64,000 nt of DNA. Origin: Phyllobacterium sp. 21LDTY02-6. GTDB taxonomy: Bacteria; Pseudomonadota; Alphaproteobacteria; Rhizobiales; Rhizobiaceae. Both the position numbers and the translations under genes were made by a program. Below are positions 2,846 to 52,302 of this stretch, in pieces (positions within the stretch are counted from its first letter, which is position 1; each line of letters starts with the position of its first letter). The notes under the pieces are model-generated. The model was not told the DNA's origin and searched no databases. It was given only the letters and a program-made list of their open reading frames with translations. The stretch is taken from the NCBI RefSeq assembly GCF_023554255.2, contig NZ_JAMJWD020000006.1, positions 186,001-250,000 on the forward strand, read 5' to 3'.

Positions 2846-3883
2846 CTATTGCCAGTCGAGCACCACCTTGCCGGAGTTGCCGGAGCGCATCGCATCGAAA
2901 CCGGTCTGGAATTCATCGATGGGCAGCCTGTGCGTGATGATGGGCGAGAGGTCGAGCCCACCCTGCACGAAGGCGATCATCTTGTACCAGGTCTCGAACA
3001 TTTCGCGGCCATAGATGCCCTTCAGGTTGAGCATCTTGAAGATGACCTTGTTCCAGTCGATCTCGAAGCCCGTCGGTGCAATGCCGAGAATGGCGATCTT
3101 GCCGCCATTGTTCATCTTGTCGATCATGTCGCGGAAGGCCGGGGCGGCGCCGGACATTTCGAGCCCGACGTCGAAGCCTTCGGTCATGCCGATATCCTTC
3201 ATCACGTCGGCGAGGTTCTGCTTCGACGCATCGACCACATGGTCGATGCCGAGTTGCCGCGCGAGGGCGAGCCGTATCGGATTGATGTCCGTTATGACCA
3301 CCTTGCGCGCGCCGGATCGCTTGGCGACGAGGGCACCCATGATGCCGATCGGCCCGGCGCCCGTCACCAGGACGTCCTCACCGACGAGATCGAAGCTCAG
3401 CGCCGTGTGAACGGCATTGCCGAACGGGTCGAATATCGCCGCCACCTCGTCGGGCACGTCATCGGGGATCGGCACGACATTATATTCGGGAATGCAGACA
3501 TATTCGCCGAACGAGCCGGGCCGATGCACGCCGACGCCGAGCGTATTGCGGCACAAATGGCCCCGCCCGGCCCGGCAGTTGCGGCAAACGCCGCACACGA
3601 TATGACCTTCGCCGGACACGCGCTGCCCGACCTTGTATTTTGTCACGGCGGAGCCGACATCGGCGATCTCGCCACAGAATTCATGGCCGACGACCATCGG
3701 GACCGGGATCGTCGCCTGGGCCCACTGATCCCAATTGTAGATGTGGACGTCGGTTCCGCAGATCGCGGATTTCCTGACGCGGATCAACACGTCGTTCGGC
3801 CCCGGTTCCGGCACGGGCACCCGCTCCATCCAGATGCCGGGTTCGGCTTTCGCCTTCACGAGGGCTTTCATCATGTTGGACAT
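2846..3883 (-). CDS. tdh: L-threonine 3-dehydrogenase
   Basis: A 345-residue zinc-dependent medium-chain dehydrogenase that oxidises L-threonine to 2-amino-3-ketobutyrate with NAD. Seen: the catalytic zinc region [14 protein letters not shown] and GHEFCGEI, the structural zinc cysteine cluster ([15 protein letters not shown]), and the Rossmann GAGPIGIMG. The ATG at 3883 gives [16 protein letters not shown], close to the usual N-terminus; an upstream in-frame start would overlap kbl. One base separates it from the kbl stop (TGACATG), so the pair is translationally coupled. It works with Kbl to turn threonine into glycine and acetyl-CoA. Confidence 0.95.
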
Positions 3884-3884
3884 G

Positions 3885-5081
3885 TCAGTTCGCTCCGATA
3901 ATTCCAAGCTCGCGCCCGACTTCGGCGAAGACTTCGATTGCGCGGGCCACATCGTCGCTCGTATGGGCGGCGGACATCTGCGTACGGATACGCGCCTGTC
4001 CCTTGGGCACGACAGGGAATGAAAACCCTATCACATAGACGCCTTTTTCAAGCATGCGCGCGGCCATTTGCTGGGCCAGCGCGGCATCCCCGAGCATGAC
4101 CGGGATGATCGCATGATCGGCGCCGGCGAGCGTGAAGCCGAGCTTTGTCATGTCGCGCCGAAAATGCTCGGCATTCGCCTGCAGCCTCGAGCGCAATTCG
4201 CCCCCGCTCTCGATGAGATCGAAAACCTTGAGCGAGGCAGCGGCGATGACCGGCGCCAGCGTATTTGAGAACAGATAGGGCCGCGAGCGCTGCCGGAGCC
4301 ATTCGACGACTTTCGCCGACGCCGACGTATAGCCGCCGGACGCGCCGCCGAGCGCCTTGCCGAGCGTGCCGGTGATGATGTCTATCCGGCCTTCGACGCC
4401 GCAATGTTCGGGCGAGCCGCGGCCATGCTTGCCGACGAAGCCGACGGCATGGCTGTCGTCGACCATGACCATGGCGCCATATTTGTCGGCGAGATCGCAG
4501 ATGCCGCCGAGATTGGCGATAATTCCGTCCATCGAGAAGACGCCGTCCGTCGCGATCATCTTGAAGCGGCTGCCTTCGGCCTTCTTCAATTCTTCCTCAA
4601 GCGCCGCCATGTCATTATTGGCGTAGCGGAACCGCTTGGCCTTGGAGAGCCGCACGCCGTCGATGATCGAGGCATGATTGAGGGAGTCGGAGATGATCGC
4701 GTCTTCCTCGCCAAGCAATGTCTCGAACAGTCCGCCATTGGCATCGAAACAACTCGAATAGAGGATGGTGTCCTCCATGCCGAGAAAGCTCGAAATGCGG
4801 CTTTCCAGCTGCTTGTGTTCCTCCTGCGTGCCGCAGATGAAGCGAACCGAAGCCATGCCATAGCCGTAACGGCTCAGTGCCGCTCTGGCAGCCTCCGCAA
4901 GTTCCTCATTATCGGCAAGGCCGAGATAATTATTGGCGCAGAAGTTCAGGACCTTGGCGCCCGATGCGACCTCGATCCTGCCCGATTGCTTGGAGGTGAT
5001 GACGCGCTCGGATTTGTAGAGCCCGGCGCCCTTCAGCTCTTCCAATTCTGCCGAAATATGTTCGATGAAAGACTTGGTCAT
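3885..5081 (-). CDS. kbl: glycine C-acetyltransferase (2-amino-3-ketobutyrate CoA ligase)
   Basis: A 398-residue PLP enzyme of the alpha-oxoamine synthase family, which cleaves 2-amino-3-ketobutyrate with CoA to glycine and acetyl-CoA. Seen: the N-terminal [10 protein letters not shown], the PLP stacking region [11 protein letters not shown], the cofactor aspartate in VDDSHAVG, and the Schiff-base lysine in [10 protein letters not shown]. Length equals that of characterised Kbl. It is the first gene of kbl-tdh; the 103-bp gap to the next gene upstream must hold its promoter. Distinguished from 5-aminolevulinate synthase and AONS by its tdh partner and overall sequence. Confidence 0.95.
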
Positions 5082-5184: not shown

Positions 5185-6999
5185 TCAGACCTGGACGAGA
5201 TGGCCGGCGGCGACTTCCCTATATTGCCGCTCGGGCATGACGAAGTCTGGCGGGCGAACCGGACTCCTGATCTCGTCATTGGAAACAGGCCGTTTCAGGC
5301 CACGCCTCGAAGGATCGGGGACCGGCACCGCGGATATGAGTTTCTTCGTATAGGGGTGCTGCGGATTCTCGAATATCGCGGCGCGCGAACCGATCTCGAC
5401 GATTTCCCCGAGATACATCACTGCTATTCGGTGGCTGACGCGCTCGACGACCGCGATATCGTGGGAAATGAAGAGGAATGCCAGGTTCAGGCTCGCCTGG
5501 AGGTCGAGCAGCAGGTTGATGACCTGCGCCTTGATCGAAACGTCGAGCGCCGACACGGATTCATCCGCGACGATCAGCTTCGGATCCAGTGCCAGCGCGC
5601 GGGCGATGCAGACGCGCTGACGCTGGCCGCCGGAAAACTCATGCGGATAGCGCGCCGCCATATCGGCGGACAGCCCGACCCGCTCCAGAAGATCGCTCAC
5701 CTTTTCCCGCGCTTGCGAGCGCGAGCCAAGCCGGTGTTCGAGAAACGGCTCGGCAATGGCGGCGCCCACCGTCATGCGCGGATTGAGGCTGGCGAAAGGA
5801 TCCTGAAAGATCATCTGCATCGTCCGGCGCGCGGCCTTCATCTCCGCCGCATCCATGGTCAATACATCCTGCCCGTTCAGGAGCACCTCGCCCGATTGTG
5901 GCTGCACCAGCCGCATGATCGAACGGCCGGTCGTCGATTTGCCGCAGCCGGATTCACCGACGAGCGACAGCGTTTCGCCCGGCTGCAACGAGAATGACAG
6001 GTTCTCGACCGCATGGACCCGGCCTTCCAGCTGGCCGAACATGCCGGAATGAATGTTGAAACGGGTCGTCAGGTTGCGCACTTCGAGCAGCGGCGGCTTG
6101 TCGGCCTGCACGGTGTCGGCCGCCTCGACAGGCTGATCGGAGGTGCCGGTGAGCTTGTCCACGACCGGGAACCGCAAGGGTCTTGTATGGCCCTGCATCG
6201 AACCGAGAATCGGCACGGCAGAGAGCAGAGAACGCGTATAGCCGTGTTGCGGGCGCTGGAAAATATCGGCGGTAGCACCGGTTTCCACTGCCTCGCCATT
6301 ATACATGACGACGGTACGGTCGGCGATTTCGGCGACGACGCCCATGTCGTGCGTAATGAAAAGGACGGAGGTGCCCTCCTCGTCCTGCAGCAGCTTTATC
6401 AGATCGAGAATCTGCCCCTGGATAGTCACGTCCAGTGCCGTCGTCGGCTCATCGGCGATCAGCAGTTTCGGCTTGCTGGCGAGGGCCATGGCGATCATCA
6501 CTCTTTGCCGCATGCCGCCGGAGAACCGATGCGGAAATTCGTCGAACCGGGCCTTTGCCGCCGGGATGCGCACCTTTTCCAGAAGACGGATGGTTTCGGC
6601 CTTGGCGTCCGCCCGCGACATGTCATGGTGGCAGAGCAGCGCTTCGCTGATCTGCCGGCCGATGGTGAAGAGCGGGTTCAGGCTGGTCATCGGCTCCTGG
6701 AAGATCATGGCGACGTCATTGCCGCGAACGTCGCGCATGCTCCGCTCGGGCAGCGCCAGGATGTCCTTGCCGCCGAGCATTATCCGGCCTTCGATGCGGC
6801 TCTTGTCCTTCTGGAGCAGCCGCATGATCGACAATGACGTCACGCTCTTGCCGGAACCGGATTCGCCGACGATCGCCACGGTTTCGCGCGGCGCGACGTC
6901 GAAGGAAACGTTGCGAACCACCGGCCGCCATTTGCCATCCGCCAGGAAGGATGTGGTCAGGTTGGAAACCGAAAGAACCGGGCTGGTCACTCTATCCAT
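5185..6999 (-). CDS. dipeptide-type ABC transporter, fused double ATPase (DppD-DppF-like)
   Basis: A 604-residue protein with two complete peptide-family nucleotide-binding domains. NBD1: Walker A GESGSGKS near 48, signature FSGGMRQRV, Walker B LLIADEPTTALD. NBD2: Walker A GESGCGKST near 355, signature FSGGQRQRV, Walker B LIVADESVSALD, where DES replaces the usual DEP. Each NBD is followed by an oligopeptide-type C-terminal extension. This is the GsiA-like fused form. It probably powers the permeases at 10856-12666 and the binding protein at 12725, although the IclR, RidA and PLP-enzyme genes lie between. It follows the SelA-like gene by nine bases, so the two are one transcript. Confidence 0.9.
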   Translation of the reverse strand: MDRVTSPVLSVSNLTTSFLADGKWRPVVRNVSFDVAPRETVAIVGESGSGKSVTSLSIMRLLQKDKSRIEGRIMLGGKDILALPERSMRDVRGNDVAMIFQEPMTSLNPLFTIGRQISEALLCHHDMSRADAKAETIRLLEKVRIPAAKARFDEFPHRFSGGMRQRVMIAMALASKPKLLIADEPTTALDVTIQGQILDLIKLLQDEEGTSVLFITHDMGVVAEIADRTVVMYNGEAVETGATADIFQRPQHGYTRSLLSAVPILGSMQGHTRPLRFPVVDKLTGTSDQPVEAADTVQADKPPLLEVRNLTTRFNIHSGMFGQLEGRVHAVENLSFSLQPGETLSLVGESGCGKSTTGRSIMRLVQPQSGEVLLNGQDVLTMDAAEMKAARRTMQMIFQDPFASLNPRMTVGAAIAEPFLEHRLGSRSQAREKVSDLLERVGLSADMAARYPHEFSGGQRQRVCIARALALDPKLIVADESVSALDVSIKAQVINLLLDLQASLNLAFLFISHDIAVVERVSHRIAVMYLGEIVEIGSRAAIFENPQHPYTKKLISAVPVPDPSRRGLKRPVSNDEIRSPVRPPDFVMPERQYREVAAGHLVQV

Positions 7000-7008
7000 T
7001 GCGCTTCC

Positions 7009-8220
7009 TCAATCCGGCCATTGCAGGAGTTTGTCGATACGCGCGGCGTAGCGTTTCTCGTATGGCGTGGCGATGATCTCGTTCGACTGGCGCGCCTTGC
7101 TCAACTCCTCGTCCAGACGGGCGGCGACGATCTCCGCCTCGCCAGGATGGAGATTGCACGGGTCCATGTAGAAATAGCCATGCTCGGTTTCATGATCGCG
7201 AACGATCACCGGACGCGCTCCCGAAGCCAGGGCATCCGCGAGATCCCAGGCGGTGATATGCGCCTCCTGCGGATCGATAGTTACGCGCAGCCGGTCGAGC
7301 GGATTGTGGGTCGGGTCCGGCTCCAGCGCCGTGGCAACGCCCGGCCTGCCGGCAAGGGTGCGCTGCCACAGATCGAGATAGCCGCTTTCGGTGGCGCGGA
7401 TTGCCGCATGATCGCGCTTTTCCCATGCCTCCAGCGCGGCAATCGTGCCGAGGATGCTTTCCTTGCCGACCTTCATCCCACGGCCGATGCCGCGATTCTG
7501 CAGAAACGCGCTGCGAACGAGGGATTTTGAACCGGCGACGATGCCGCCCGTAGGGCCGCCCAGGAACTTGTGCGAGGAATAGAGCACCACATCGGCACCC
7601 TGTTCCAGGAACAGCCGCAGATCATATTCGGACGCCGCATCGACGATGACCGGAACGCCGCGCGCATGGCAGGTCTCGGCAAATTGCTTCAGGCCGATAA
7701 GCCCGTACTGCACGGTGTGGTGCGAAACCACGAAGACGGCCGCCGCCGTCCGTTCATTGATGGCGCCATCGAGATGATAGGGATAGCAGGAGGTTGCCTG
7801 GCCGATATAGATGGCCTTGGCGCCAGCGAGCCGGATGCCCTGATCGACCGGCGCGCCATAGCTGACGACCTGGCCGGTCTGGATGATGACTTCGTCCTTG
7901 AGGCCGGTCGCATCCGGCAGTCGCTCGATGGCAGCCAGATCATCGCCAGTCATCGCACCTGCCACGGCAAGCGTGATGCCGGCTGAACAGGACGCCGTGA
8001 CGAAGCCCGCCTCGCCGCCGGTGAGACGCGCGATGACGGGACTGGCGATCTTGTGCAATTCGTTGATCTCGACGAATTCCGGCAGGATGGCGGCAACGGC
8101 AGCCACCGCTTCCGGCACGACGATCGACGCCCCCAATGCCGTCATGGTCCCGGAGACGTTGATGACGGGCCGCAGTTTCCGCGCTGCGCGAATATCGGGT
8201 GCCAGGCTCAGATCAGTCAT
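7009..8220 (-). CDS. SelA-like PLP-dependent enzyme, probable ammonia-lyase or aminotransferase-fold enzyme
   Basis: About 403 residues, related to L-seryl-tRNA(Sec) selenium transferase (COG1921) but of the subgroup that includes D-glucosaminate-6-phosphate ammonia lyase and the 'selA-related' PLP enzymes. Seen: the lysine motif [15 protein letters not shown] and an upstream D in [12 protein letters not shown] likely to hold the pyridine nitrogen. No selenocysteine genes are nearby, so selenium chemistry is unlikely. The ATG at 8220 has GGAG seven bases upstream, so I prefer it over 8232. Neighbours (COG3964 hydrolase, RidA, peptide-type ABC) suggest beta-elimination or deamination of a released amino acid. 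The exact substrate is unknown. Confidence 0.75.
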
Positions 8221-8258
8221 GAAGGTCTCCATTGCAAGGAAATAAGTTCCATTTCTTT

Positions 8259-8268
8259 GGCATATGCC
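8259..8268. promoter_or_regulatory. candidate IclR operator, palindrome GGCATATGCC
   Basis: A perfect 10-bp palindrome about 40 bp upstream of the SelA-like gene and about 55 bp upstream of the preferred start of the divergent IclR regulator. Short symmetric sites are usual for IclR dimers. Function is inferred from position. Confidence 0.35.
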
Positions 8269-8321
8269 GTAATAATGTAATAGCTTTCGCCAGAATCCTT
8301 CACCAAAGGGGAGCCGGACAC

Positions 8322-9131
8322 TTGGACAGCACTTCCATCGCGCAGACTGAAGCGGCCTCTCAAAAGGCGAAGCGCTCGCGCGTGAGCGGAATAGATCGCG
8401 CGCTGCAGGTCATCGACTATCTTTATGACACCGGGAGCGCGGTCGGCGTCTATGCCATAGCCAAGGCGATCGGCGCTCCGCTTTCCACCGTCTATGTCAT
8501 CATCGACGATCTGGTCGAGAAGAACCTTCTGTCCCGCAACCGGGATGGAACGGTCTGGCTCGGTGCGCGGCTCTACCATTACGGCCTGGCCTATGGTCGG
8601 TCGCTGGATTTTCTCAACGTGGCCAATCACGAAATGCACGATCTGAGCCGCCTTGCCGGCGAGACCGTGCAGGTTTGCGGCCGCGATGGAGATCATATGA
8701 TCGTTCTCGCCATGGCCGATGGCCCCGGTCACTTCCAGGTCGCCTCGCGCGTCGGAACGCGCGTGCCGTTGAACTGGACGGCTTCCGGCCGGCTTCTCGT
8801 CGGACACCTGCCCGAGCAGGAGCGCCTCGATCTTTTCGAACATTGCGCCAAATCCTCGCCGACTGGCCGGGCCATCATCGATCCCGCCGCGCTGTCCACT
8901 GCGGCGAGCGAGGCCCTCAAGACGCGCATTTCCATCCAGGCCGGCGAGTCGGATTACGCCGTCGCCTGCGTGGCCTCGCCGATCTGCGACGACAAGGGCG
9001 CCTGCATCGCCACGATATCGATCGTCCTCGCCGAGCAGAAGATCGCCGAGAACCCGGAACGCTATACGGCCGAGGTCATGGCGTCGGCGGAGCGGATCGA
9101 GACGGTTATGGGCTGGCGCGGTCATTCCTGA
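8322..9131 (+). CDS. IclR-family transcriptional regulator
   Basis: About 269 residues from a TTG at 8322, preceded by AAGGGGAG at good spacing; an in-frame ATG at 8232 would add 30 residues of poor character and overlap the divergent gene's start, so I prefer TTG. Seen: the N-terminal winged HTH ([14 protein letters not shown], then [19 protein letters not shown]) and the IclR effector domain ([20 protein letters not shown], then [16 protein letters not shown]). It sits between the two halves of the peptide-type ABC cluster, convergent with the RidA gene and divergent from the SelA-like gene, and likely controls both transcripts in response to the cluster's substrate. Confidence 0.85.
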
Positions 9132-9138
9132 TCTTCCG

Positions 9139-9633
9139 TCAGCTCTTCAAGGCGACGATCGCCTCGATCTCGACTGTGATGTTGCCCGGCAGCGAGCCGA
9201 AACCCACGGCCGAACGGGCATGATTTCCAGCCTCGCCAAACACCTCGATCAATAGGTCGGAGCAGCCATTGATCACCGAAGGATGGTCGCCGAATTCAGG
9301 TATGGCATTGACCATGCCGAGCAGCTTTACGACGCGCTTGACCCGGCCGAGATCACCCAGCGCGGATTGCATGACCGCGAGCAGGTTGATGCCTGTCAGC
9401 CGCGCATGGTGGTAAGCGTCCGCGGCGGAGACGTCCCGCCCGACCTTGCCCGTATGGAGGAAGCCGTCATCCTCGCGCGGCCCCTGCCCCGACAGATAGA
9501 GAAGATTGCCCTCCTGGATATGGGTGACGAAGTTCGCAATGGGGCTTGGCGGTGGCGGCAGCACCACGCCGAGCGCCTTCAGCCGCTCATAGGGCGACTG
9601 GGTCTCGGCGATCGTATCGGAATTGGAATTCAC
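9139..9633 (-). CDS. RidA-family protein (enamine/imine deaminase family)
   Basis: A 164-residue YjgF/YER057c/UK114 protein with an N-terminal extension of about 30 residues compared with E. coli RidA. Seen: the strand LYLSGQGPRE near residue 50 and the catalytic-type arginine in NHARSAVGFGSLPGN near 140. RidA proteins hydrolyse reactive enamine/imine intermediates released by PLP-dependent dehydratases, to keto acids and ammonia. That fits the SelA-like PLP enzyme nearby. The start is GTG at 9633, with AGGA eight bases upstream. It follows the amidohydrolase by nine bases and probably ends that transcript. Confidence 0.85.
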   Translation of the reverse strand: MNSNSDTIAETQSPYERLKALGVVLPPPPSPIANFVTHIQEGNLLYLSGQGPREDDGFLHTGKVGRDVSAADAYHHARLTGINLLAVMQSALGDLGRVKRVVKLLGMVNAIPEFGDHPSVINGCSDLLIEVFGEAGNHARSAVGFGSLPGNITVEIEAIVALKS

Positions 9634-9642
9634 GACGGGGTC

Positions 9643-10854
9643 CTAACGGTAAGAATAGGGCGCAATGGCGCCGGATGTTTCGGGTTTCTGCGGCTGGTGG
9701 CGGCTCGCGGAATGGGTTTCGTTGCCGAGAACGACGAGCCTCGGCTCGAAAAGCCTGTCGAGTTGTGCTTCGTAGCCCATGGAGTCGATGACGCGCAGAT
9801 CGGAATCGGCAAGATCGAAAAGGGTAAAGTCGGCGCGCGTTCCCTTCGCAAGCAGGTTCTCCGTCGGCAGGCCGATGGCAGATGCCGGCGAGATGGTGAC
9901 GGCCTCGACCACCTTGTCGAAAGGCATGCCGACGCTGAGCAGCTTGGACATGGTGGTGCTGAGGTCCCAGACCGAGAAATTGAGGCTGCGCAGGTGGATA
10001 TCGGTGGAGATGGAAAACGGCAGCAGCCCGCGCTGGATTGCAACTTCAGCCACACGGAACGAGAACGATGCGCCACCATGGCCGATATCAAGACGGATGC
10101 CCTCGCCGGCACAACGCTCCGCCAGCTCGAACAGGTCGTCATCTTCGATGATGCTGCTGCCCACCTTGCCGTTGAAGCAATGGGTGATGATATCGCCCGG
10201 CCCGAGGATTTCGAGCACTTCCTCATAGAGCGCCGGCGGTTCGCCGACATGCACCATCATCGGGATCTTCAGGATCTTGGCGATCTTCTTGCCGAGCTTT
10301 ACCGGGGTCACGCCCCATGAACCGGTAATGACATGGCTGGCGCGCACCTTCAGGCCGACGATGTGATCGCGGTTCTCGTTGACGCAGGCGACAGTGCGGT
10401 CGATGTCGATCGAACGGATATCGCTCAACTCGCTGACGCGATTGCAGGCAACAAGGCCGATCGACCCGAGGTTGAGGAACGCCTTGATGCGCTCCTTGGC
10501 GGGATCGATGATATATTCACGGAACCCATGGAAATTCGCCTCGCCGGCCGAGCCCGCATCGACGATCGTCGTGACGCCGCGCTCGATACCGCAAAGCTGC
10601 GGGCGCACGGATATGTCCGTGCCGCCGTGCCAGATATGGGTGTGAAGATCCACCCAACCCGGCGAGATCCAGGAACCGCCGCCATCCACGCGCTTGATAT
10701 CGCCCGGCACATCGAGCGACGGCCCATGGTCGGCGATGGTACCGTCGGCGCCGATAAGGATGTCGATGGTACCGGAAGGCGTGGAAGGACCGAAAGCAAC
10801 CGGTTTGACATTGGTTACCAGGAGGCGCCCATCGGTTGCTGGGGAGGCTTGCAT
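9643..10854 (-). CDS. amidohydrolase-superfamily deacetylase, COG3964 / EF_0837-AHA_3915 type
   Basis: A 403-residue metal-dependent hydrolase. Seen: metal ligands HTH in WVDLHTHIWHGG near residue 70, a lysine in HIVGLKVRAS that probably bridges two metals as a carbamate, MVHVGEPP, ITHCFNG, and the catalytic aspartate region FSISTDIHLRS. These match the COG3964 group, often misnamed dihydroorotase. As I recall, characterised members (such as Atu3266) remove acetyl groups from alpha-acyloxy carboxylates rather than act on pyrimidines. It is one base downstream of the permease gene, so it is part of the transport operon. I infer it removes an acyl group from the imported compound. Confidence 0.8.
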   Translation of the reverse strand: MQASPATDGRLLVTNVKPVAFGPSTPSGTIDILIGADGTIADHGPSLDVPGDIKRVDGGGSWISPGWVDLHTHIWHGGTDISVRPQLCGIERGVTTIVDAGSAGEANFHGFREYIIDPAKERIKAFLNLGSIGLVACNRVSELSDIRSIDIDRTVACVNENRDHIVGLKVRASHVITGSWGVTPVKLGKKIAKILKIPMMVHVGEPPALYEEVLEILGPGDIITHCFNGKVGSSIIEDDDLFELAERCAGEGIRLDIGHGGASFSFRVAEVAIQRGLLPFSISTDIHLRSLNFSVWDLSTTMSKLLSVGMPFDKVVEAVTISPASAIGLPTENLLAKGTRADFTLFDLADSDLRVIDSMGYEAQLDRLFEPRLVVLGNETHSASRHQPQKPETSGAIAPYSYR

Positions 10855-10855
10855 T

Positions 10856-11725
10856 TCAGAGATCCTTTCTTAGGCGTGGGTCGAGAAGGTCGCGGAACCC
10901 GTCGCCAACCATTTGCAGTGACAGCACGGCAAGCACGATGGCGACGCCTGGGAAAAGCGTCATCCAGTCGGCGGTGCCGATATATTGGCGCCCGGCCGCT
11001 ATCATGGTTCCCCAGGTGGGGATTTCGGGGCTGACGCCGAGGCCGAGGAAGGACAGACCCGCCTCTGCAAGCATGGCATTGGCGAAAAGAAACGTTCCCT
11101 GCACCAGGATCGGCGACAGCAGATTGCGCAATATGTGCCGCGTCATGATGTGCCAGGTGGAAATGCCGAGCGACGTCGCCGCCTCCACGTAGGGCAATTC
11201 GCGGATTACCAGCGTCGAAGCGCGCACGACACGCGCGAGGCGCGGCGCATAGACGATGCTGAGCGCGATGATGACCGTCGTGAGCGAGGGGCCGAGCGCC
11301 GCGACGAGTGCGATCGCCAGCAGAATATCCGGAAATGCCATCATCGCATCGATCAGCCGCGTGATCGGCGCATCCAGCCGGTGAAAGAAGCCGGCGAGCA
11401 TGCCGAGCGTCACGCCGATCACCGATGCCAGGATCACGACGGCGAAGCCGACGAGCAGCGACAGCCGTGCCGCGAAGATGGTGCGGGAAAATACGTCCCG
11501 GCCAAACTCATCCGTGCCGAACAGCCAGCGCGCATCCGGCGGTTTCAGACGGTTGACGATCGAAAGCTTGTTGGGCGCATAGGGCGTTATGACTGGCGCG
11601 AGCGCCGCGAGCAGCACGAAGAGGACGAGGACGATCAGCCCGAACAGCACGGTCTTGCGCTTGATCAGCGTCCTCAGGAACTTTGCCCGCTCGGTTCGCG
11701 GTGCCGCAGTGGAGATATCGGCCAT
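10856..11725 (-). CDS. dipeptide-type ABC transporter permease (DppC-like)
   Basis: A 289-residue inner-membrane permease. A first membrane segment near residues 28-50 precedes the DppC-family N-terminal region (FGTDEFGRDVFSRTIFAARLS), and the permease EAA-type loop lies around EAATSLGISTWHIMTRHILRN near residue 175. The start codon overlaps the stop of the DppB-like gene by one base (TGATG), and the stop is one base before the amidohydrolase start, which ties transport and hydrolysis together. Pairs with the DppB-like protein and the fused ATPase at 5185. Confidence 0.92.
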   Translation of the reverse strand: MADISTAAPRTERAKFLRTLIKRKTVLFGLIVLVLFVLLAALAPVITPYAPNKLSIVNRLKPPDARWLFGTDEFGRDVFSRTIFAARLSLLVGFAVVILASVIGVTLGMLAGFFHRLDAPITRLIDAMMAFPDILLAIALVAALGPSLTTVIIALSIVYAPRLARVVRASTLVIRELPYVEAATSLGISTWHIMTRHILRNLLSPILVQGTFLFANAMLAEAGLSFLGLGVSPEIPTWGTMIAAGRQYIGTADWMTLFPGVAIVLAVLSLQMVGDGFRDLLDPRLRKDL

Positions 11726-12666
11726 CAGTAGCGAACCCTCGGATCGACAAGAAGATAGAGCATGTCGATGGCAAAATTGATGAGCACGTAAAGTGCGGCG
11801 ATGATCAGCAGCGCGCCCTGGATGACGGGATAATCCCGCCGCAGCACGGCCGAAACGACAAGACTGCCGACGCCGGGAAGACCGAAGACGGTTTCGGTGA
11901 CGACGGCGCCCGAGACAAGCACGGCAGCGGTGAGGCCGATGACCGTCAGGATGGGAATGAGCGCGTTCTTGAACGCATGTTTCAACACCACGCTGCGCTC
12001 CTCGACACCCTTGGCACGGGCGGTGCGGATATAGTCATCGCCGAGCACGTCGAGCATCGAAGCACGGGTGAAGCGCATGATGAGGGCCGAGGACACGATG
12101 CCCAGCGCGAAGGACGGCAGGACCAGATAGCCGAGACGCTCGTGCAGCGCCGTTCCCGGCCCACCATAGCCGGAGACCGGAAACAGGCCGAAGCGAACGG
12201 AAAATATCTGCATCAGGATCAGGCCGAGCCAGAAGCTCGGAATGCTCGCCGCCAGCATGGCAAGGGCGGTGGCGGCCTGGTCGAACAGGGAACCGCGCCG
12301 ATAGGCGGCATAGATGCCGATGGGAATGGCGATGATGCTGGCGATGGCGAGCGAGAACACCGTCAGGAAGAATGTCGGCTCGGCCCGTTGCACCAGCGCC
12401 TGCAGCACCGGCTGATTGAGGAAGATCGATTGACCGAGATCGCCCTGCAACAGGTTGCCGATGAAATAGAAATATTGCAGCGGTATCGACTGATCGAGCC
12501 CGAGTTGCTGGCGCAAGGCGGCGATATCGGCCGCCGTCGCCTCCGGTCCGAGCATCACGGCAGCAGGATCGCCCGGTGTCACCCGGACGATGACGAAGAC
12601 GATCGTCACCACCAGGAACATCACGATGATCATGCCGATAAAGCGTTGTATGATGTAACGGAGCAT
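11725..12666 (-). CDS. dipeptide-type ABC transporter permease (DppB-like)
   Basis: A 313-residue inner-membrane permease of the DppB family. Seen: the N-terminal membrane helix (residues about 9-30), the conserved RVTPGDPAAVMLG region, the PSFWLGLILMQIF segment near 135, and the EAA-type loop DYIRTARAKGVEERSVVLKHAFKNAL near 200 onward, where the motif spans more than one helix turn. It begins about 60 bp after the binding-protein gene, with a GC-rich hairpin between the two. Confidence 0.92.
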   Translation of the reverse strand: MLRYIIQRFIGMIIVMFLVVTIVFVIVRVTPGDPAAVMLGPEATAADIAALRQQLGLDQSIPLQYFYFIGNLLQGDLGQSIFLNQPVLQALVQRAEPTFFLTVFSLAIASIIAIPIGIYAAYRRGSLFDQAATALAMLAASIPSFWLGLILMQIFSVRFGLFPVSGYGGPGTALHERLGYLVLPSFALGIVSSALIMRFTRASMLDVLGDDYIRTARAKGVEERSVVLKHAFKNALIPILTVIGLTAAVLVSGAVVTETVFGLPGVGSLVVSAVLRRDYPVIQGALLIIAALYVLINFAIDMLYLLVDPRVRY

Positions 12667-12697
12667 CTGCTTGACGAAATCCTTGCGGCAGCAATGC

Positions 12698-12716
12698 GGC
12701 GGGCAGCCAGCCCGCC
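12698..12716 (-). other. intercistronic hairpin between binding-protein and permease genes
   Basis: GGCGGGC and GCCCGCC (7-bp arms, 5-base loop) lie between the binding-protein stop (12725) and the DppB-like start (12666). No T-tract follows, so it is more likely an mRNA-stabilising structure that raises binding-protein yield than a terminator. Confidence 0.45.
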
Positions 12717-12724
12717 GGGCGGCG

Positions 12725-14257
12725 CTATTGCTGTTTCAGCGAAACGTTCCAGAAGTACGGCCAGGGCGCGGGCGTGAACCCTTCGAGCTTGGGCGATTTG
12801 GCCGACAGCGCGTTGAAATCGCCGATCTTGATGATCGGCACCTCCGCATAGATCACCTTCTGCACCTCGGCCCAGAGCGCGATGCGCTTTTGCGGGTCGA
12901 CTTCCGCGTTGAACGCATCGACAGCCACCTTGCGTGCGGGCGTATCCCAATTGCCGGGGGCGCTGGTCGACAGCGATCCGATCAGCGCGGGCTCCGGAAG
13001 GAATGGGCTGTGGCTGATATAGATGTCCCAGAGCTTGGGATCGGCGCGGCGCTGCGTCAGCGTCGCCCAATCGACGACCTGCATGTCGACGGTGAAGCCG
13101 GCAGCCTTCAGATATTCGGCCGCGACCTGGGCCATCTTGTAGTGGAACTCATATTGCCGGCTGGTGAGAATACGGATCGGCTCGCCATTGTAGCCGGCCT
13201 TCTTCATCAGCTCCCCGGCCTTTTCCGGGTCGGCGACATTATAGGCGCCCTCAGTGCCGGCATCGGTCTTCCAGCTATAGCCATCGGGGTAGAGCGAGGC
13301 GTTGAGCGCGTAGAATTCGGGACTGCCGAACGCCGCCGCCATCATGTCTTCCATGCTGAGCGCATCACGTATCGCGAGGCGGATGTCCTGGTTCTTGGTG
13401 ATACCGGCCGCGGTATTCATGACGAAGACCGGCCATCCGAACGGCTTGAGCAGGACGGGTTCGGCCGTGGTCTGGCCCTTCAGCCGCTCATAGGCTTCGA
13501 CGGGCAAACTATCCACATAGTCGAACTGGCCGGAAACTGCGCCTTCCACGCGGGTGTTCGCGTCCGGTACAGGCACGAAGCGGATCTCGTCGAGATATTG
13601 ATGCCGCGCACCGCCATAGCCGTTTTCTTCGCCCTCGATCGACTTGTAGGCGTCAAAACGCTCGAGCTGGATATATTGGTCCGGCTTGCGCTCCTTCAGC
13701 TTGTAGGGTCCGGTTCCGACCGGCTCCGTCATCGGGTTCTGCTGCTTCTCGCTCGGGAGGATGATTGCTGCGGCATTGTTGAAGGCCAGCAGCGACAGCA
13801 GCGGCGCATGCGGCGCGTTCAGGGTGATCTTCACCGTCGCCGCATCGGGCGCCTCGATCGAGGTGATCAGCGGAGCGACCTGCTTGCCGCGCGATGCGAG
13901 CTCCGTCCACCGCTTCAGCGAAGCAACGACGTCGGCCGAATCCATGTCGGTTCCGTCGTGGAACTTCACGCCCGTGCGCAGCTTGATCGTATATACTTTT
14001 CCATCCGCCGAAATCTCGGGCAGCGCGGCGGCCAGCAAGGGAGTCGGGTTCCAGCTCTTGTCGAAGGTATACAGGGTCTCGAAAATGTGCTGCGAGACGA
14101 TGCCGACAAGATCGGCCGTCGATGCCATGGCATCCAGCGTCGGCGGTTCGCCGATGGTCGCCACATTGATGACGCCGCCCTTGGATTGCGCGAAGGCGGA
14201 TATATTGCTGGCGACGATCGCGGTTCCGAGCAGCAGCGCGAGTTTTAAAGCTTGCAT
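12725..14257 (-). CDS. dipeptide-type ABC transporter substrate-binding protein (SBP family 5)
   Basis: About 510 residues with a cleavable signal peptide (KLALLLGTAIVASNISAFAQ), then a DppA/OppA-type periplasmic binding protein. Seen: the conserved HIFETLYTFD near 60 and the family signature region VKFHDGTDMDSADVVASLKR near 110. Three ATGs are possible (14272, 14260, 14257); AGGGGA sits five bases from the one at 14257. It is the first gene of a leftward operon with both permeases, the amidohydrolase and RidA. Family 5 proteins bind peptides, glutathione, opines or acylated compounds, so the ligand is not fixed by family alone. Confidence 0.92.
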   Translation of the reverse strand: MQALKLALLLGTAIVASNISAFAQSKGGVINVATIGEPPTLDAMASTADLVGIVSQHIFETLYTFDKSWNPTPLLAAALPEISADGKVYTIKLRTGVKFHDGTDMDSADVVASLKRWTELASRGKQVAPLITSIEAPDAATVKITLNAPHAPLLSLLAFNNAAAIILPSEKQQNPMTEPVGTGPYKLKERKPDQYIQLERFDAYKSIEGEENGYGGARHQYLDEIRFVPVPDANTRVEGAVSGQFDYVDSLPVEAYERLKGQTTAEPVLLKPFGWPVFVMNTAAGITKNQDIRLAIRDALSMEDMMAAAFGSPEFYALNASLYPDGYSWKTDAGTEGAYNVADPEKAGELMKKAGYNGEPIRILTSRQYEFHYKMAQVAAEYLKAAGFTVDMQVVDWATLTQRRADPKLWDIYISHSPFLPEPALIGSLSTSAPGNWDTPARKVAVDAFNAEVDPQKRIALWAEVQKVIYAEVPIIKIGDFNALSAKSPKLEGFTPAPWPYFWNVSLKQQ

Positions 14258-14298
14258 CATGTTCCCCTGCATTGTTCTATAATTATGGATTAAAGTGC

Positions 14299-14400: not shown

Positions 14401-15690
14401 CTAGACGATGCCGCCACCGCCGGCAATGGCGGCGGGCCTTTCCTTGCCGATACTGGCGCGATAGCCGCTCCGGCGATAGGCGGCTATCGGGTCGATGGCC
14501 CCACCAGAACGCAGGCGGGCTTCCGCCAGTATGGGCTCGACATCGGTGCGGTAGGCAATTTTCAGTGCCTGCGCCGCCATCAGCGCATCATTGTCGTCCT
14601 GATAGCCCTCCAGTGCCTCGCGGTCCACAAGCATGGCCTGGGCATAGGCCCGCCGAATCTCGTTGGCGCTGCTGATGAGGCTTTCGATCGGATCGGTCAC
14701 ATTGTGCGACTGGTCGATCATATGCGCCGGCTGGAAACCCTCAGCGCCGCGCCGCTCCGCATCGACGAGCTCGTTGAACACCAGGAACAGCCGGTATGGA
14801 TCGATGGAGCCGGCGTCGAGATCGTCATCGCCATATTTCGAATCGTTGAAATGGAAGCCGCCGAGCTTGCCGAACTGGATCAGCCGCGAAACGATCATTT
14901 CAATGTTGGTATTGGGCGCATGATGACCGAGGTCGACGAGGCAGAACGCCTTGGGGCCGAGCGTCTGCGCAATAAGATAGTTGGTACCCCAGTCCTGGAC
15001 CACCGTCGAGTAAAAGGCCGGTTCGAACATCTTGTGTTCCGAGAACAGCCGCCAATCATCCGGCAGCGCCTGGTAGATCTGCGCCATGGAATCCAGATAG
15101 CGCTCGAACGACCTGGCGAAATTGCTCTGGCCGGGGAAGTTGGACCCGTCACCGATCCACACCGTCAGCGCTTTCGAGCCTAGCGCCTTGCCGATCTCGA
15201 TACATTCAAGATTGTGTTCGACCGCCTGGCTGCGCGTCGCCGCATCGACATGGCTCAGCGATCCATATTTATAGGAATGGGCCTGATCGGGCGCGTCCGA
15301 GAAGGTATTGGAGTTCATGGCATCGAAGCCGAGTCCCAATCCCTCGGCGCGTTGCTTCAGCTTCTGCACGTCCGCCTTGTCCCAGGGAATATGCAGCGAA
15401 ACCGTGGGCGTCGCCCTCGTCAGCTGGTGGATGACGCCGCAATCGTCCAGCTTGTCGAAAATATCGCGAGGCTCGCCTCTACCCGGAAACCGCGCGAAGC
15501 GCGTGCCTCCCGTGCCGACGCCCCACGAAGGCACCGCAACGAAGAACTCTGCAACCTTCGCAGTTATCTGCTCGATGTCGATGCCGCGCCGCGCCAATTG
15601 AGCGCCGAGCGCCTCATAGTCGCTTTTCTGCGCCGATTGCAGCCGTCCGTTTTCCTCAACGATCAGCTCGTCGCTTATCCGCTCAACCAT
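14401..15690 (-). CDS. rhaI: L-rhamnose isomerase (rhizobial type)
   Basis: A 429-residue TIM-barrel sugar isomerase converting L-rhamnose to L-rhamnulose. It is of the RhaI/Pseudomonas-type family, not E. coli RhaA. Metal-site regions seen: SEHKMFEPAFYST near 220, LVDLGHHAPNTNIEM near 260 and GGFHFNDSKYGDDDLDAG near 285. The ATG at 15690 has GGGGAGG upstream; the longer open frame overlaps rhaD and is not needed. Second gene of rhaD-rhaI, ending in a strong terminator. Confidence 0.93.
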   Translation of the reverse strand: MVERISDELIVEENGRLQSAQKSDYEALGAQLARRGIDIEQITAKVAEFFVAVPSWGVGTGGTRFARFPGRGEPRDIFDKLDDCGVIHQLTRATPTVSLHIPWDKADVQKLKQRAEGLGLGFDAMNSNTFSDAPDQAHSYKYGSLSHVDAATRSQAVEHNLECIEIGKALGSKALTVWIGDGSNFPGQSNFARSFERYLDSMAQIYQALPDDWRLFSEHKMFEPAFYSTVVQDWGTNYLIAQTLGPKAFCLVDLGHHAPNTNIEMIVSRLIQFGKLGGFHFNDSKYGDDDLDAGSIDPYRLFLVFNELVDAERRGAEGFQPAHMIDQSHNVTDPIESLISSANEIRRAYAQAMLVDREALEGYQDDNDALMAAQALKIAYRTDVEPILAEARLRSGGAIDPIAAYRRSGYRASIGKERPAAIAGGGGIV

Positions 15691-15728
15691 TCTATCCTCC
15701 CCGACAATCTTAGCGTGTAAGCCCTGGC

Positions 15729-17825
15729 CTAGCGTGTAAAGCTCTGCGCGTTGCCCGCATCGACATTGATGATATTGCCCGTGGACTTGGACGAAGCATC
15801 GGATGCGAGGAAATGGATCGCTTCGGCGATATCTTCCGGGAACACGTTCAGTTTCAGCATCGAGCGTTTGCGATAATGCTCCTCGAGTTCGTCGACCTGG
15901 AGATTGGAGGACGCGGCGCGCTGCTCGCGCCACTCGCCGTTCCAGATTTTCGAACCGCGCAGCACAGCATCGGGATTGACGGTATTCACCCGGATGCCGG
16001 CCTCCGCACCTTCAAGCGCGAGACAGCGGGCGAGATGAATCTCGGCAGCCTTGGCCGCGCAATAGGCGCTTGCGTTCGGCGAGGCGGCGAGACCATTCTT
16101 CGAGGCGACGAACACGATATTGCCGCCCAACCGCTGGCGCCGGAACAGGCGGAACGCTTCCCGCGACACGAGGAAATAGCCGGTCGCGAGAATATCCATG
16201 TTGCGGGACCAGACTGACAATTCGGTGCTCTCGATCGGTGCGGCGGATGCGATGCCCGCATTGGAGACAAGAATGTCGATGCCACCGAACTCGACGGTCG
16301 CCTCGGCGAAACCGGCAGCAACGGCGGACTCGTCCGTGACGTCGAGCTTGACGCTGCGAACCGTGTCGGCGGTGAAGCGCTTGGCGAAGTCGGTTTGCGC
16401 GGCGGCTAGCGCGGCATCGTCGATATCGGCAAGCACGACGCAGGCGCCCTCGCCCAACAGCCTCTCGGCCGTGGCGCGGCCTATGCCGCCGGCACCGCCG
16501 GTGACGAAGGCGACACGGCCGGCAAGCGATTTCGGCTTCGGCATGCGCTGCAGCTTGGCCTCCTCGAGCAGCCAGTATTCAATGTCGAACGCCTCCTGCT
16601 CCGGCAGGCCCTGATATTCCGATACGGTCGAGGCGCCGCGCATGACGTTGATGGCATTGACGTAGAACTCGCCGGCGATCCGCGCCGTCGCCTTGTCCTT
16701 GGCGAAAGACAACATGCCGACGCCGGGTATGAGGAAAATGACCGGATTCGGATCTCGCATGGGCGGCGAATTGTCGTGCCTGCAGGCATTATAATAGCGG
16801 GCATAGTCGGCACGGTAGGCCTCGAGCGCCTGATCCAGCGCAGCAATGACGGCGTCCGCATCGGGATTGGCGGCGTCGAAATCCAGCACCAGCGGCCGGA
16901 TCTTCGTGCGCAGGAAATGGTCGGGACAGCTGGTGCCGAGCGCGGCAAGGTCGCGGAGCGCATGGGAATTCACGAATTCGAGCACGGCTGGCTGGTCGTC
17001 GAAATGGCCGAGCTTGCGCTCCGCCTGTCCGATGCGCCCGCGGATTTCCGGCATCAAACGCGCGGCGACGTCGCGCCGGGCCTTTGCATCGAGGCTGCCG
17101 CCAACCGCGCCGCCGAATATCTCTTTTCCGGCCGTCTGATCCTCGAACCAGACGATCGCCTTGTTGATGACATCGAGCGTCAGTTCATAGCATTCCCTGG
17201 CATCATCGGCCCAGGTAAAGAGCCCGTGGCTCTCCAGAACCACGCCTTTGGCGTTCGGATTGGCGGCAACGAAGGCGCCAAGATCGAGACCGAGCTGGAA
17301 ACCGGGCCGACGCCATGGCAGCCAGCCGATGTCATCGCCGAAGACCTGCCGGGTCAACTCGCGCGAGTTCTTCGAGGCTGCGATCGCAATGATGGCGTCG
17401 GGATGCATATGGTCCACATGCCTGAAGGGCACGAAGCCATGAAGCGGCGTGTCGATCGAGGCAGCGCGGGAATTGAGGTTGAACGTGCAATGCGGCAGGA
17501 AGCCGACCATCCTGTCCTCATCCTCGACGCCCTTGTAGATCGATTTCAACGAATGCAGCTTGTCGAGATAAAGCGTGGCGAAGCCATCGAGCTTGATCGT
17601 GCCGACATCGCCGCCGGAGCCCTTCACCCAGAGGACCTCGACGGGCTCGCCCGTCAGCGGATCGGTTTCCGTTACCTTGGCGGAGGTATTGCCGCCGCCA
17701 TAATTCGTGATGCGCTTGTCCGCACCGAGAAGATTCGACCGGTAAAGGAGCTTGCCGGGCTCGTCCAGGGTGGCCGCCTTGGCATCGTCCCAGCGATTAT
17801 CAAGAAGTTTTACCTTGTCTGCCAT
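15729..17825 (-). CDS. rhaD: bifunctional rhamnulose-1-phosphate aldolase / short-chain dehydrogenase
   Basis: A 698-residue two-domain protein. Residues about 1-420 form a class II aldolase (AraD/FucA type) with the zinc-ligand histidines in HVDHMHPDAI. Residues about 430-698 form an SDR with FVTGGAGGIGRAT and the active-site YCAAKA. It cleaves rhamnulose(-1-phosphate) to dihydroxyacetone phosphate and L-lactaldehyde; the dehydrogenase half probably oxidises lactaldehyde. This fusion is typical of rhizobial and Bacillus rha loci. Divergent from rhaR with a 209-bp promoter region rich in repeats. Confidence 0.93.
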   Translation of the reverse strand: MADKVKLLDNRWDDAKAATLDEPGKLLYRSNLLGADKRITNYGGGNTSAKVTETDPLTGEPVEVLWVKGSGGDVGTIKLDGFATLYLDKLHSLKSIYKGVEDEDRMVGFLPHCTFNLNSRAASIDTPLHGFVPFRHVDHMHPDAIIAIAASKNSRELTRQVFGDDIGWLPWRRPGFQLGLDLGAFVAANPNAKGVVLESHGLFTWADDARECYELTLDVINKAIVWFEDQTAGKEIFGGAVGGSLDAKARRDVAARLMPEIRGRIGQAERKLGHFDDQPAVLEFVNSHALRDLAALGTSCPDHFLRTKIRPLVLDFDAANPDADAVIAALDQALEAYRADYARYYNACRHDNSPPMRDPNPVIFLIPGVGMLSFAKDKATARIAGEFYVNAINVMRGASTVSEYQGLPEQEAFDIEYWLLEEAKLQRMPKPKSLAGRVAFVTGGAGGIGRATAERLLGEGACVVLADIDDAALAAAQTDFAKRFTADTVRSVKLDVTDESAVAAGFAEATVEFGGIDILVSNAGIASAAPIESTELSVWSRNMDILATGYFLVSREAFRLFRRQRLGGNIVFVASKNGLAASPNASAYCAAKAAEIHLARCLALEGAEAGIRVNTVNPDAVLRGSKIWNGEWREQRAASSNLQVDELEEHYRKRSMLKLNVFPEDIAEAIHFLASDASSKSTGNIINVDAGNAQSFTR

Positions 17826-17908
17826 TTGCGCCTCCCGGAAATATATTCAAGGCCGTCATCGCGGGCCTTCTGAGTTTCCCTAGCTATGGGCAGATCGGAA
17901 TTTGATGT

Positions 17909-17995
17909 CAATCATAAACAATCATGTTCGATCATAAACTTCCATGCTGCAGCGCAATATGAAATTATATGATTGAAGTTGATTGACACCAATCC
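17909..17995. promoter_or_regulatory. probable RhaR operator array, 10-bp-phased repeats
   Basis: CAATCAT, CAATCAT and CGATCAT occur at 17909, 17919 and 17929, exactly one helical turn apart. In the opposite orientation, ATGATTG and TTGATTG occur at 17969 and 17979, also 10 bp apart. The array lies between rhaD and rhaR, where a DeoR-family repressor should bind. Phasing and symmetry are seen; RhaR binding is inferred. Confidence 0.6.
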
Positions 17996-18034
17996 TGATT
18001 ATGCGCATTAAATACGGCCAGGAGGAGCATTTGC

Positions 18035-18841: not shown

Positions 18842-18886
18842 CTGCCGATGTGACCGGGTAAGACAGTCAATCTTTGGGAGGATGAC

Positions 18887-51652: not shown

Positions 51653-52156
51653 TCAGGCAGCGGCGGCGTTGACGTGGCTTTCGGCCAGGCCGGTGAGGGT
51701 CTTGTCGGTCTTCATCTCTTCATCGAGATTCTGTTGCAGCAGCGCCGCGCAATCGGGGCGGCCCAGCTGATTGGCCCAGGCCACCAGCGTGCCATAGCGG
51801 GTGATCTCGTAATGTTCGACCGCCTGTGCGGCCGCGATCAGCGCCGCATCCAGCACCTGGTCGTCATCGACTTCGCCGGCCACCTCGTCGGCTTCCTCGA
51901 GAATGCCGTCGATCGCCGGGCAGTTGACGCCGCTGACGTCGACGCCATGCTGCTTGAACACCTGTTCCAGCCGCTCGATCTGCATCTGGGTCTCCTGAAG
52001 ATGCTTTTCGAAGCCGCTCTTCAATTCCTGGTTGGAAGCCTTGTCGATCATTTCAGGCAGCGCCTTCACGATCTGGTTCTCGGCGTAATAGATGTCGCGC
52101 AGCGTATGAACGAACAGATCGTCCATCGACTTGATGTCCTTGGAAAAGAATCCCAT
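51653..52156 (-). CDS. DUF892 ferritin-like protein (YciE/YciF family)
   Basis: A 167-residue all-helical protein. Seen: LFVHTLRDIYYAENQIVKAL near residue 14 and QAVEHYEITRYGTLVAWANQ near 105, the E-x-x-H type helices of a ferritin-like di-metal site. YciE/YciF proteins are general-stress proteins of uncertain chemistry. AAGGAGGAA lies seven bases before the ATG at 52156; the frame open further upstream is not coding. Single gene with a strong terminator, which fits an RpoE/EcfG-type stress regulon in rhizobia, though no such promoter was confirmed here. Confidence 0.85.
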   Translation of the reverse strand: MGFFSKDIKSMDDLFVHTLRDIYYAENQIVKALPEMIDKASNQELKSGFEKHLQETQMQIERLEQVFKQHGVDVSGVNCPAIDGILEEADEVAGEVDDDQVLDAALIAAAQAVEHYEITRYGTLVAWANQLGRPDCAALLQQNLDEEMKTDKTLTGLAESHVNAAAA

Positions 52157-52302
52157 GTCATTCCTCCTTCGCATCGGAAATTCAACAGCCATCGGCGGCT
52201 CCCGGCGGGAATCCGTCGCAGCATGTGCTTCTTGGCAGTGACGGAATATCAACGAGAGGCGGGCGGAATAGTTCCTGAGCGCGATGCGGGAAACGCGGAG
52301 GG

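What the first reader, a model, noticed from the sequence alone, without database searches (positions are those of the whole stretch)
5185..14257. Candidate undescribed catabolic pathway: ABC importer + COG3964 deacetylase + SelA-like PLP enzyme + RidA + IclR
The sequence shows a peptide-family transporter co-transcribed with a COG3964 amidohydrolase and RidA, and a SelA-like PLP enzyme next to the transporter ATPase, with one IclR regulator between. From family knowledge, COG3964 enzymes remove acyl groups from alpha-substituted carboxylates, PLP lyases release enamines, and RidA hydrolyses enamines. A consistent pathway is: import of an acylated or opine-like amino acid, deacylation, ammonia elimination, then enamine hydrolysis to a keto acid. 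The substrate is not assigned.
Basis: partly seen in the sequence, partly recalled or inferred. Interest (0 to 1): 0.78.

Follow-up and report, generated by a model that had tools for sequence, protein, structure and literature searches.

The report
Rhizobial N-acyl amino acid catabolic operon
A conserved but little-studied set of soil-bacterium genes appears to import an acylated amino acid (possibly an oxidised chitin sugar), strip the acyl group and then remove its ammonia; it is a variant of pathways known elsewhere, and its exact food molecule is still unproven.

Summary
Window 5185-14272 encodes a peptide-type ABC importer, a COG3964 hydrolase 72% identical to PDB 2ogj, a Rid protein, an IclR regulator and a SelA/DgaE-like PLP enzyme. 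It is one system: the gene set is conserved across related genomes, and a 20-bp palindrome marks both transcription units.

The main new result is a natural experiment. Where the importer is this SBP_bac_5 type, the hydrolase is adjacent in 52 of 55 loci; where it is a polar-amino-acid type, in 0 of 11. The lyase tree needs at least three changes between the states. So the hydrolase most likely frees the amino acid that the other group imports directly.

[quoted passage not shown] In one relative a 2-keto-3-deoxygluconate-kinase-like gene directly follows the operon. Best reading: N-acyl-D-glucosaminate-type compound, deacylated, then converted to a 2-keto-3-deoxy acid plus ammonia. The scheme is likely (about 0.8); the substrate is inferred (about 0.5). 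A new variant of a known kind.

The parts
12725..14272 (-). SBP_bac_5 substrate-binding protein of the ABC importer; true start may be 14260 or 14257
   Evidence: Pfam PF00496 242 bits; adjacent to the set in 55 loci
11725..12666 (-). Dpp/Gsi/Nik-type permease B
   Evidence: PF00528 141.6 bits
10856..11725 (-). Dpp/Gsi/Nik-type permease C
   Evidence: PF00528 and OppC_N
9643..10854 (-). COG3964 amidohydrolase/deacetylase, proposed N-deacylase
   Evidence: NCBIfam NF006689 423.8 bits, cut-off 371; 72.1% identical to 2ogj over 387 residues; H71, H73, K169, H202, H225, D285 kept in 107-108 of 108 homologues
9139..9633 (-). Rid-superfamily protein, proposed imine/enamine hydrolase
   Evidence: PF14588 74.5 bits, cut-off 35; R140 in 146 of 146 homologues
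8232..9131 (+). IclR-family regulator; likely start TTG 8322
   Evidence: PF01614 and PF09339
7009..8232 (-). SelA/DgaE-like PLP enzyme, proposed ammonia-lyase; possible start 8220
   Evidence: TIGR01437 298 bits, cut-off 385.3; best PDB relative 7lc0; H171/H172, K222, R314, R345 shared with DGL, C359 in place of R346
5185..6999 (-). fused two-domain ATPase of the importer
   Evidence: two ABC_tran domains; the two halves are separate genes in many relatives
14273..14292 (-). palindromic operator-like site upstream of the SBP gene
   Evidence: matrix trained without the window; none of 500 shuffles scored as high
8263..8282 (-). palindromic operator-like site in the IclR-PLP intergenic region
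   Evidence: same matrix; none of 500 shuffles scored as high

Best explanation
One IclR-linked catabolic system. The ABC importer takes up an N-acylated, beta-hydroxy, probably D-configured amino acid. The COG3964 enzyme removes the acyl group. The SelA/DgaE-like PLP enzyme eliminates water from the freed amino acid and releases an enamine/imine, which the Rid protein hydrolyses to a 2-keto-3-deoxy acid plus ammonia. The likeliest substrate is an N-acyl-D-glucosaminate (for example 2-acetamido-2-deoxy-D-gluconate, GlcNAc1A, from oxidised chitin), giving 2-keto-3-deoxygluconate (KDG), for which this genome has a KdgK-like kinase and a KDPG aldolase elsewhere. Shown by computation: one conserved gene set, a shared operator-like site, transporter-hydrolase coupling, conserved catalytic residues, partial loss of the phosphate cluster, a KdgK-like gene beside the operon in two relatives. 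Inferred: every reaction, the configuration and the sugar identity. I put the general scheme at about 0.8 and the glucosaminate-type substrate at about 0.5 (raised from 0.4); the score is for the whole statement.
For: Hydrolase adjacent in 52 of 55 SBP_bac_5-type loci against 0 of 11 polar-amino-acid-type loci (Fisher p 3.4e-10, not corrected for relatedness); at least three changes of state on the lyase tree; no column fixed differently between 126 lyases >=60% identical to the window's and 7 of the polar-amino-acid type. Operator-like palindrome held out in 31 of 45 IclR-PLP intergenic regions. Lyase keeps DGL His-162, His-163, Lys-213 (chain numbering), R301 and R332 and has Cys for R346 in 146 of 151 locus sequences. 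KdgK-like ORF directly downstream of the ATPase on the same strand in L122 (261 bits to the KdgK model, cut-off 400), and a RpiR-type regulator + KdgK-like + Eda cluster near the operon in L126 (Eda 195.7 bits, TIGR01182 cut-off 156). Priestia and C. difficile: COG3964 + DgaE lyase + KDGP aldolase + sugar kinase, Priestia also with a gluconate permease. Own genome: Eda over its equivalog cut-off, KdgK-like 282 bits.
Against: A KdgK-like gene was found in only 2 of 172 loci searched and Eda in 1 of 172; earlier queries from other phyla found none in the alphaproteobacterial loci. DGL R226, near the alpha-carboxylate in the published docking, is Ser in the window enzyme and variable in the family. 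Priestia keeps R346 although its operon has a gluconate permease, so loss of R346 is not a clean marker. More distant relatives sit with FMN dehydrogenase, RraA-like, PALP, gamma-glutamyltranspeptidase-like and MlrC genes. R. aethiopicum, which carries the cluster (L159, L175), was Biolog-negative for D-glucosaminic acid and for D-serine, though the importer may need the acylated form. The recalled preference of Atu3266 for acetyl-(R)-mandelate fits no obvious natural substrate. No reaction was measured.
Confidence: 0.5

Rival explanations
1. Same pathway logic, but the freed amino acid is a small or acidic beta-hydroxy D-amino acid (D-serine, D-threonine, 3-hydroxyaspartate, 3-hydroxyglutamate) imported as an N-acyl or dipeptide-like conjugate; the product is pyruvate, 2-oxobutyrate or an oxo-diacid.
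For: SBP_bac_3 proteins of the other class resemble polar-amino-acid binders; two arginines of the DGL phosphate cluster remain and could bind a distal carboxylate; the recalled weak activity of Atu3266 on N-acetyl-D-serine; OngC, a different fold, also deaminates D-serine and D-threonine; distant relatives sit with peptidase and amino-acid-type genes.
Against: Closest characterised lyase acts on a sugar acid; KdgK-like gene beside the operon in L122 and KdgK+Eda near L126; KDGP aldolase in the four other-phylum operons seen.
Confidence: 0.3
2. The hydrolase is an esterase or amidase for an unrelated carboxylate (such as acetyl-(R)-mandelate-like esters), and it shares the importer but not the lyase's pathway.
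For: Recalled in vitro preference of Atu3266 for alpha-acyloxy carboxylates; in Rhizobium the hydrolase and an IclR gene lie apart from the rest (26 of 80 named loci lack it within the fetched stretch).
Against: Hydrolase tied to importer type across independent changes; shared operator-like site; the same two families paired in Firmicutes and Klebsiella.
Confidence: 0.12
3. Chance neighbours with no joint function.
For: kbl and tdh beside the ATPase in the closest loci only show that unrelated neighbours occur here.
Against: Conservation in many genera and families, and the shared operator-like site.
Confidence: 0.03

Closest known systems
ong pathway for oxidised chitin (OngB, OngC, OngD, KdgK), Pseudoalteromonas (PMC9537276, passages and section 13 read)
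   Same: Deacetylase, then PLP deaminase, a Rid protein essential in vivo, and a KDG kinase; no prior phosphorylation
   Different: OngB is a subtype V D-aminoacylase-like enzyme (PMC12017989 passages), OngC is fold-type III PLP, the importer is an SSS symporter and the regulator MurR/RpiR; here COG3964, SelA/DgaE-like, ABC, IclR
[quoted passage not shown]
   Same: Lyase family, His-162/His-163, PLP lysine, R301, R332
   Different: PTS import and phosphorylated substrate; R346 is Cys here; about 36% identity; no dedicated aldolase in this operon
COG3964 + DgaE + KDGP aldolase operons of Priestia, C. difficile and Klebsiella
   Same: The same two enzyme families encoded side by side
   Different: Other importers, dedicated aldolase, sugar kinase in two of them, no Rid gene seen beside them; hydrolase and lyase much less similar to the window's
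Atu3266-type COG3964 hydrolase (PDB 2ogj; assignment and kinetics recalled)
   Same: 72.1% identity over 387 residues; metal-site residues kept
   Different: Known to me as a single assayed enzyme with no assigned pathway

Membership tests
Atu3266-type COG3964 hydrolase | Passes the PRK09237 amidohydrolase/deacetylase model | tested here: met
   423.8 bits, cut-off 371
Atu3266-type COG3964 hydrolase | HxH, Lys, His, His, Asp metal site (roles recalled) | tested here: met
   107-108 of 108 homologues
Atu3266-type COG3964 hydrolase | Hydrolyses alpha-acyl carboxylates | not testable with these tools
   needs enzyme assay
[quoted passage not shown]
   NF047797 280.8 vs 600; TIGR01437 298 vs 385.3
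[quoted passage not shown]
   H171/H172 and K222 in the window enzyme
[quoted passage not shown]
   R346 is Cys; the other two kept
SelA selenocysteine synthase | Curated model cut-off | tested here: not met
   51.3 vs 267.9 bits
Rid (imine deaminase) family | Active-site Arg equivalent to RidA Arg-105 (equivalence by motif) | tested here: met
   R140, 146 of 146; role from PMC5619798 passages
Rid (imine deaminase) family | TIGR00004 cut-off (RidA proper) | tested here: not met
   32.1 vs 106.25 bits; Pfam Rid-type models passed
ong pathway | Orthologous OngB/OngC enzymes | tested here: not met
   By family: COG3964 and SelA-like here, D-aminoacylase-like and fold-type III there; no direct sequence comparison made
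ong pathway | Converts GlcNAc1A to KDG | not testable with these tools
   needs enzyme assay

The most novel reading that the evidence does not exclude
This is a terrestrial N-acyl-D-glucosaminate (oxidised chitin) pathway, built independently of the marine ong pathway from COG3964 + SelA/DgaE-family + Rid. Its lyase would supply a gene for the unphosphorylated D-glucosaminate ammonia-lyase activity (EC 4.3.1.9) that I recall as described for Agrobacterium radiobacter, and it would give Atu3266-type hydrolases their natural substrate. These bacteria would have switched repeatedly between importing the acylated and the free amino sugar acid.
Probability: 0.35. Interest if true: 0.7.

Novelty: new variant of a known kind. 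Interest (0 to 1): 0.5.

Why it matters
The operon is found in many nodule-forming and soil alphaproteobacteria, yet the annotations seen are generic ('amidohydrolase/deacetylase', 'aminotransferase class V-fold', 'L-seryl-tRNA selenium transferase'). If the reading holds, it gives a natural role to a hydrolase whose crystal-structure homologue has no pathway that I know of, marks an apparently unphosphorylated branch of the DgaE family by testable residues, and shows the deacylase + PLP lyase + Rid logic assembled from different families than in the ong pathway. The transporter-hydrolase coupling makes the substrate question directly testable: the two binding-protein classes should bind the acylated and the free form of the same amino acid.

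Tried and rejected
In-frame TGA reported for several hydrolase homologues looked like possible selenocysteine beside a SelA-like gene; alignment showed stops only at or beyond query residue 388, at the C-terminal end. Rejected.

SelA (selenocysteine synthesis) function: 51.3 vs 267.9 bits. Rejected.

tdh/kbl as part of the pathway: adjacent only in the closest loci (4 of 72; 14 of 80). Not part.

Loss of R346 as a clean marker of an unphosphorylated substrate: weakened, since Priestia keeps Arg.

Haloarchaeal relatives (PLP gene with Rid and glucose 1-dehydrogenase, or with D-aminoacylase, PIG-L deacetylase and GH20; chitin clusters of Natrarchaeobius, PMC12343721 passages) looked like support for glucosaminate; the five aligned lack His-163 and R332, so I give them little weight.

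KDG kinase/aldolase near the operon: none with queries from Priestia, C. difficile and Klebsiella in the alphaproteobacterial loci; with this genome's own KdgK-like and Eda proteins, two loci of 172.

Further operator sites: apart from the two sites, the only hits are at 3 mismatches (three places, against two for the reversed-pattern control). L272 lies by an IHF-like gene and L271 by sugar-nucleotide-type genes (by inspection); C5:307841 was not looked at. Shared 16-mers between the two promoter regions gave little.

Literature: searches of the held open library found no paper on Atu3266 or its neighbours and none, among the listed titles and abstracts, on this pathway in rhizobia. Ornelas et al. 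2013 is not held and is cited from memory, as is the Agrobacterium radiobacter enzyme. PMC4433059 and PMC8581550 were searched for terms and gave nothing useful.
Full report
WHAT IS THERE. The window lies on contig C9 of a 4.6 Mb genome. Its nearest named relatives at this locus are Phyllobacterium strains and an unplaced Rhizobiales isolate (capped at 80 loci; records of the genome itself may be left out). The genes claimed are all present. Family scans name an SBP_bac_5 binding protein, two Dpp-type permeases, a fused two-domain ATPase, a COG3964 amidohydrolase/deacetylase, a Rid-type protein, an IclR regulator and a SelA/DgaE-like PLP enzyme. The hydrolase is 72.1% identical over 387 residues to PDB 2ogj, which I recall as Atu3266 of Agrobacterium, active on acetyl-(R)-mandelate and weakly on N-acetyl-D-serine (recalled; the paper is not held). 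[quoted passage not shown]

CONSERVATION. The PLP enzyme alone matched 24 of 199 genomes of the order (E<=1e-30), 54 of 297 of the family (E<=1e-60) and 21 of 385 of the class (E<=1e-40). I fetched regions for 55 of the 56 places, 22 of the 27 and 20 regions for the 36 places; the own copy and several short contigs were left out. Of the 92 loci, 1 had no PLP match at the threshold and 10 had one below 45% identity. Of the other 81, 55 carry the SBP_bac_5 (SBP5) importer, 11 a polar-amino-acid (SBP3) importer and 15 neither by these queries. Among the 80 named loci, 54 hold the hydrolase and 26, all of the Rhizobium type with SBP, permeases, Rid, PLP and ATPase, lack it within the fetched stretch. 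Plasmid records of Salipiger, Paracoccus and Sagittula (Rhodobacterales) hold importer, hydrolase, Rid, IclR and PLP in one block.

THE NATURAL EXPERIMENT. In SBP5 loci the hydrolase is adjacent in 52 of 55; in SBP3 loci in 0 of 11 (Fisher p 3.4e-10, which ignores relatedness). The SBP3 protein resembles binders of polar amino acids. Of the six family genomes with an SBP3 locus, one search gives no hydrolase of >=45% identity for four (none at E<=1e-60 for G371 and G239; 34-38% matches for G136 and G349); in the other two (G279, G069) it lies at a second lyase locus. On a maximum-likelihood tree of 73 lyases (a selection), well-supported branches force at least three changes of the SBP3 state; three changes may be one gain and two losses. 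One SBP3 lyase (L082) nests among SBP5 lyases, and its genome G279 also has an SBP5 locus (L078). L092, whose lyase nests with an SBP3 lyase, has a hydrolase and an oligopeptide-type binding protein. No column is fixed differently (>95% each) between 126 lyases at >=60% identity to the window's, mostly SBP5 type, and 7 SBP3-type ones. The simplest reading is that both groups degrade the same amino acid and the hydrolase frees it from a conjugate that the peptide-type importer brings in. Rid is adjacent in 55 of 55 SBP5 loci and in 7 of 11 SBP3 loci at >=45% identity.

CO-REGULATION. A matrix trained on SBP upstream regions of 45 loci (window excluded) converged on TATTCCATAATTATGGAATA. In the IclR-PLP intergenic regions of the same 45 loci, not used in training, 31 scored above the 95th percentile of base shuffles (Mann-Whitney p 2.7e-10; loci are related, and shuffles keep only base composition). 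The window's sites at 14273-14292 and 8263-8282 each beat all 500 shuffles. A pattern written to fit these two sites has no other place under 3 mismatches in the genome; at 3 mismatches there are three others, against two for the reversed-pattern control. That the IclR protein binds these sites is inferred.

CHEMISTRY. The six expected metal-site residues of the hydrolase are kept in 107-108 of 108 homologues, the Rid arginine in 146 of 146 and the PLP lysine in 162 of 162. Against DGL the enzyme keeps His-162 and His-163 (His-163 protonates C3 and avoids enamine release; PMC9529869), R301 and R332. R346 of the phosphate cluster is Cys in 146 of 151 locus sequences, and K/R20, K160 and R297 are also replaced across the alphaproteobacterial clade. 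This suggests an unphosphorylated substrate. Against it: Priestia keeps R346, and DGL R226, placed near the alpha-carboxylate by docking in that paper, is Ser here and variable in the family.

SUBSTRATE. For a glucosaminate type: the lyase's family; COG3964-DgaE-KDGP aldolase operons in Priestia (with sugar kinase and gluconate permease), C. difficile (with sugar kinase) and Klebsiella; the ong pathway, which shows the same order of steps with enzymes of other families (PMC9537276; PMC12017989 passages). In L122 a KdgK-like ORF (6419-7399, 326 aa, 261 bits to the KdgK model with cut-off 400) directly follows the ATPase on the same strand, the ORFs as called overlapping by 59 bases; in L126 a HexR/RpiR-type regulator, a KdgK-like gene and an Eda gene (over TIGR01182's cut-off) stand side by side about 3.5 kb beyond the SBP gene. 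This genome has an Eda over its equivalog cut-off and a KdgK-like kinase (282 vs 400 bits) elsewhere. Against: these two are the only KdgK hits in 172 loci; more distant relatives sit with MlrC, FMN dehydrogenase, RraA-like, PALP and GGT-like genes; R. aethiopicum, whose genome carries the cluster (L159, L175), was Biolog-negative for D-glucosaminic acid and D-serine (PMC5278577 passage). Ensifer aridi is positive for D-glucosaminic acid (PMC5237526 passage), but I do not know whether it carries either class. I commit to N-acyl-D-glucosaminate as the best single candidate at about 0.5, with the general scheme at about 0.8.

MEMBERSHIP AND NOVELTY. The hydrolase belongs to the Atu3266-type COG3964 group. 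The lyase probably works like DgaE but fails the DgaE cut-offs and one defining residue, so I do not file it as DgaE. The cluster resembles the ong pathway in logic, not in parts. The Rid protein's relatives in the PDB include PA0814 and ACIAD3089, Rid1 proteins with imine deaminase activity (PMC5619798 passages). In the held open library I found no paper on these loci; most subscription journals are not covered. Verdict: new variant of a known kind, of moderate interest, with a short and direct set of tests.

Noticed in passing
window 2846-5081: L-threonine 3-dehydrogenase and glycine C-acetyltransferase genes follow the ATPase on the same strand; adjacent only in the closest loci.
   Followed up: yes
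window 14401-19885; L218 4205-8849: A rhamnose-type catabolic operon (name by inspection) borders the system here and in close relatives; in R. etli pA a homologous operon sits beside the relocated IclR and hydrolase-length genes.
   Followed up: partly
window 51653-56425: A DgoA-like 2-dehydro-3-deoxy-6-phosphogalactonate aldolase (285 bits, cut-off 207) with an SDR and another IclR regulator (KdgR model 135 bits, below cut-off).
   Followed up: partly
L125, L126, L232, L242: MlrC/M81-type metallopeptidase genes recur near distant lyase relatives (weaker matches in L235, L238, L187); they may be another deacylase solution.
   Followed up: no
L248-L251: Haloarchaeal SelA-like enzymes lie with Rid, glucose 1-dehydrogenase, PIG-L deacetylase, D-aminoacylase or GH20 genes but lack the His-163 and R332 equivalents.
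   Followed up: partly
L216 2265-3287; L181, L191, L209: A putative beta-N-acetylhexosaminidase gene, beside an ABC importer in R. etli, lies within about 10 kb of the operon in 12 loci, Rhizobium and Microvirga.
   Followed up: no
L074 4682-5838: The hydrolase gene is split into two overlapping pieces in different frames; a frameshift or an assembly error.
   Followed up: no
L252 6971-8575: A distant SelA-like homologue (30%) in S. meliloti lies in a cluster with phosphoenolpyruvate mutase and phosphocholine-type genes, unrelated to this operon.
   Followed up: no
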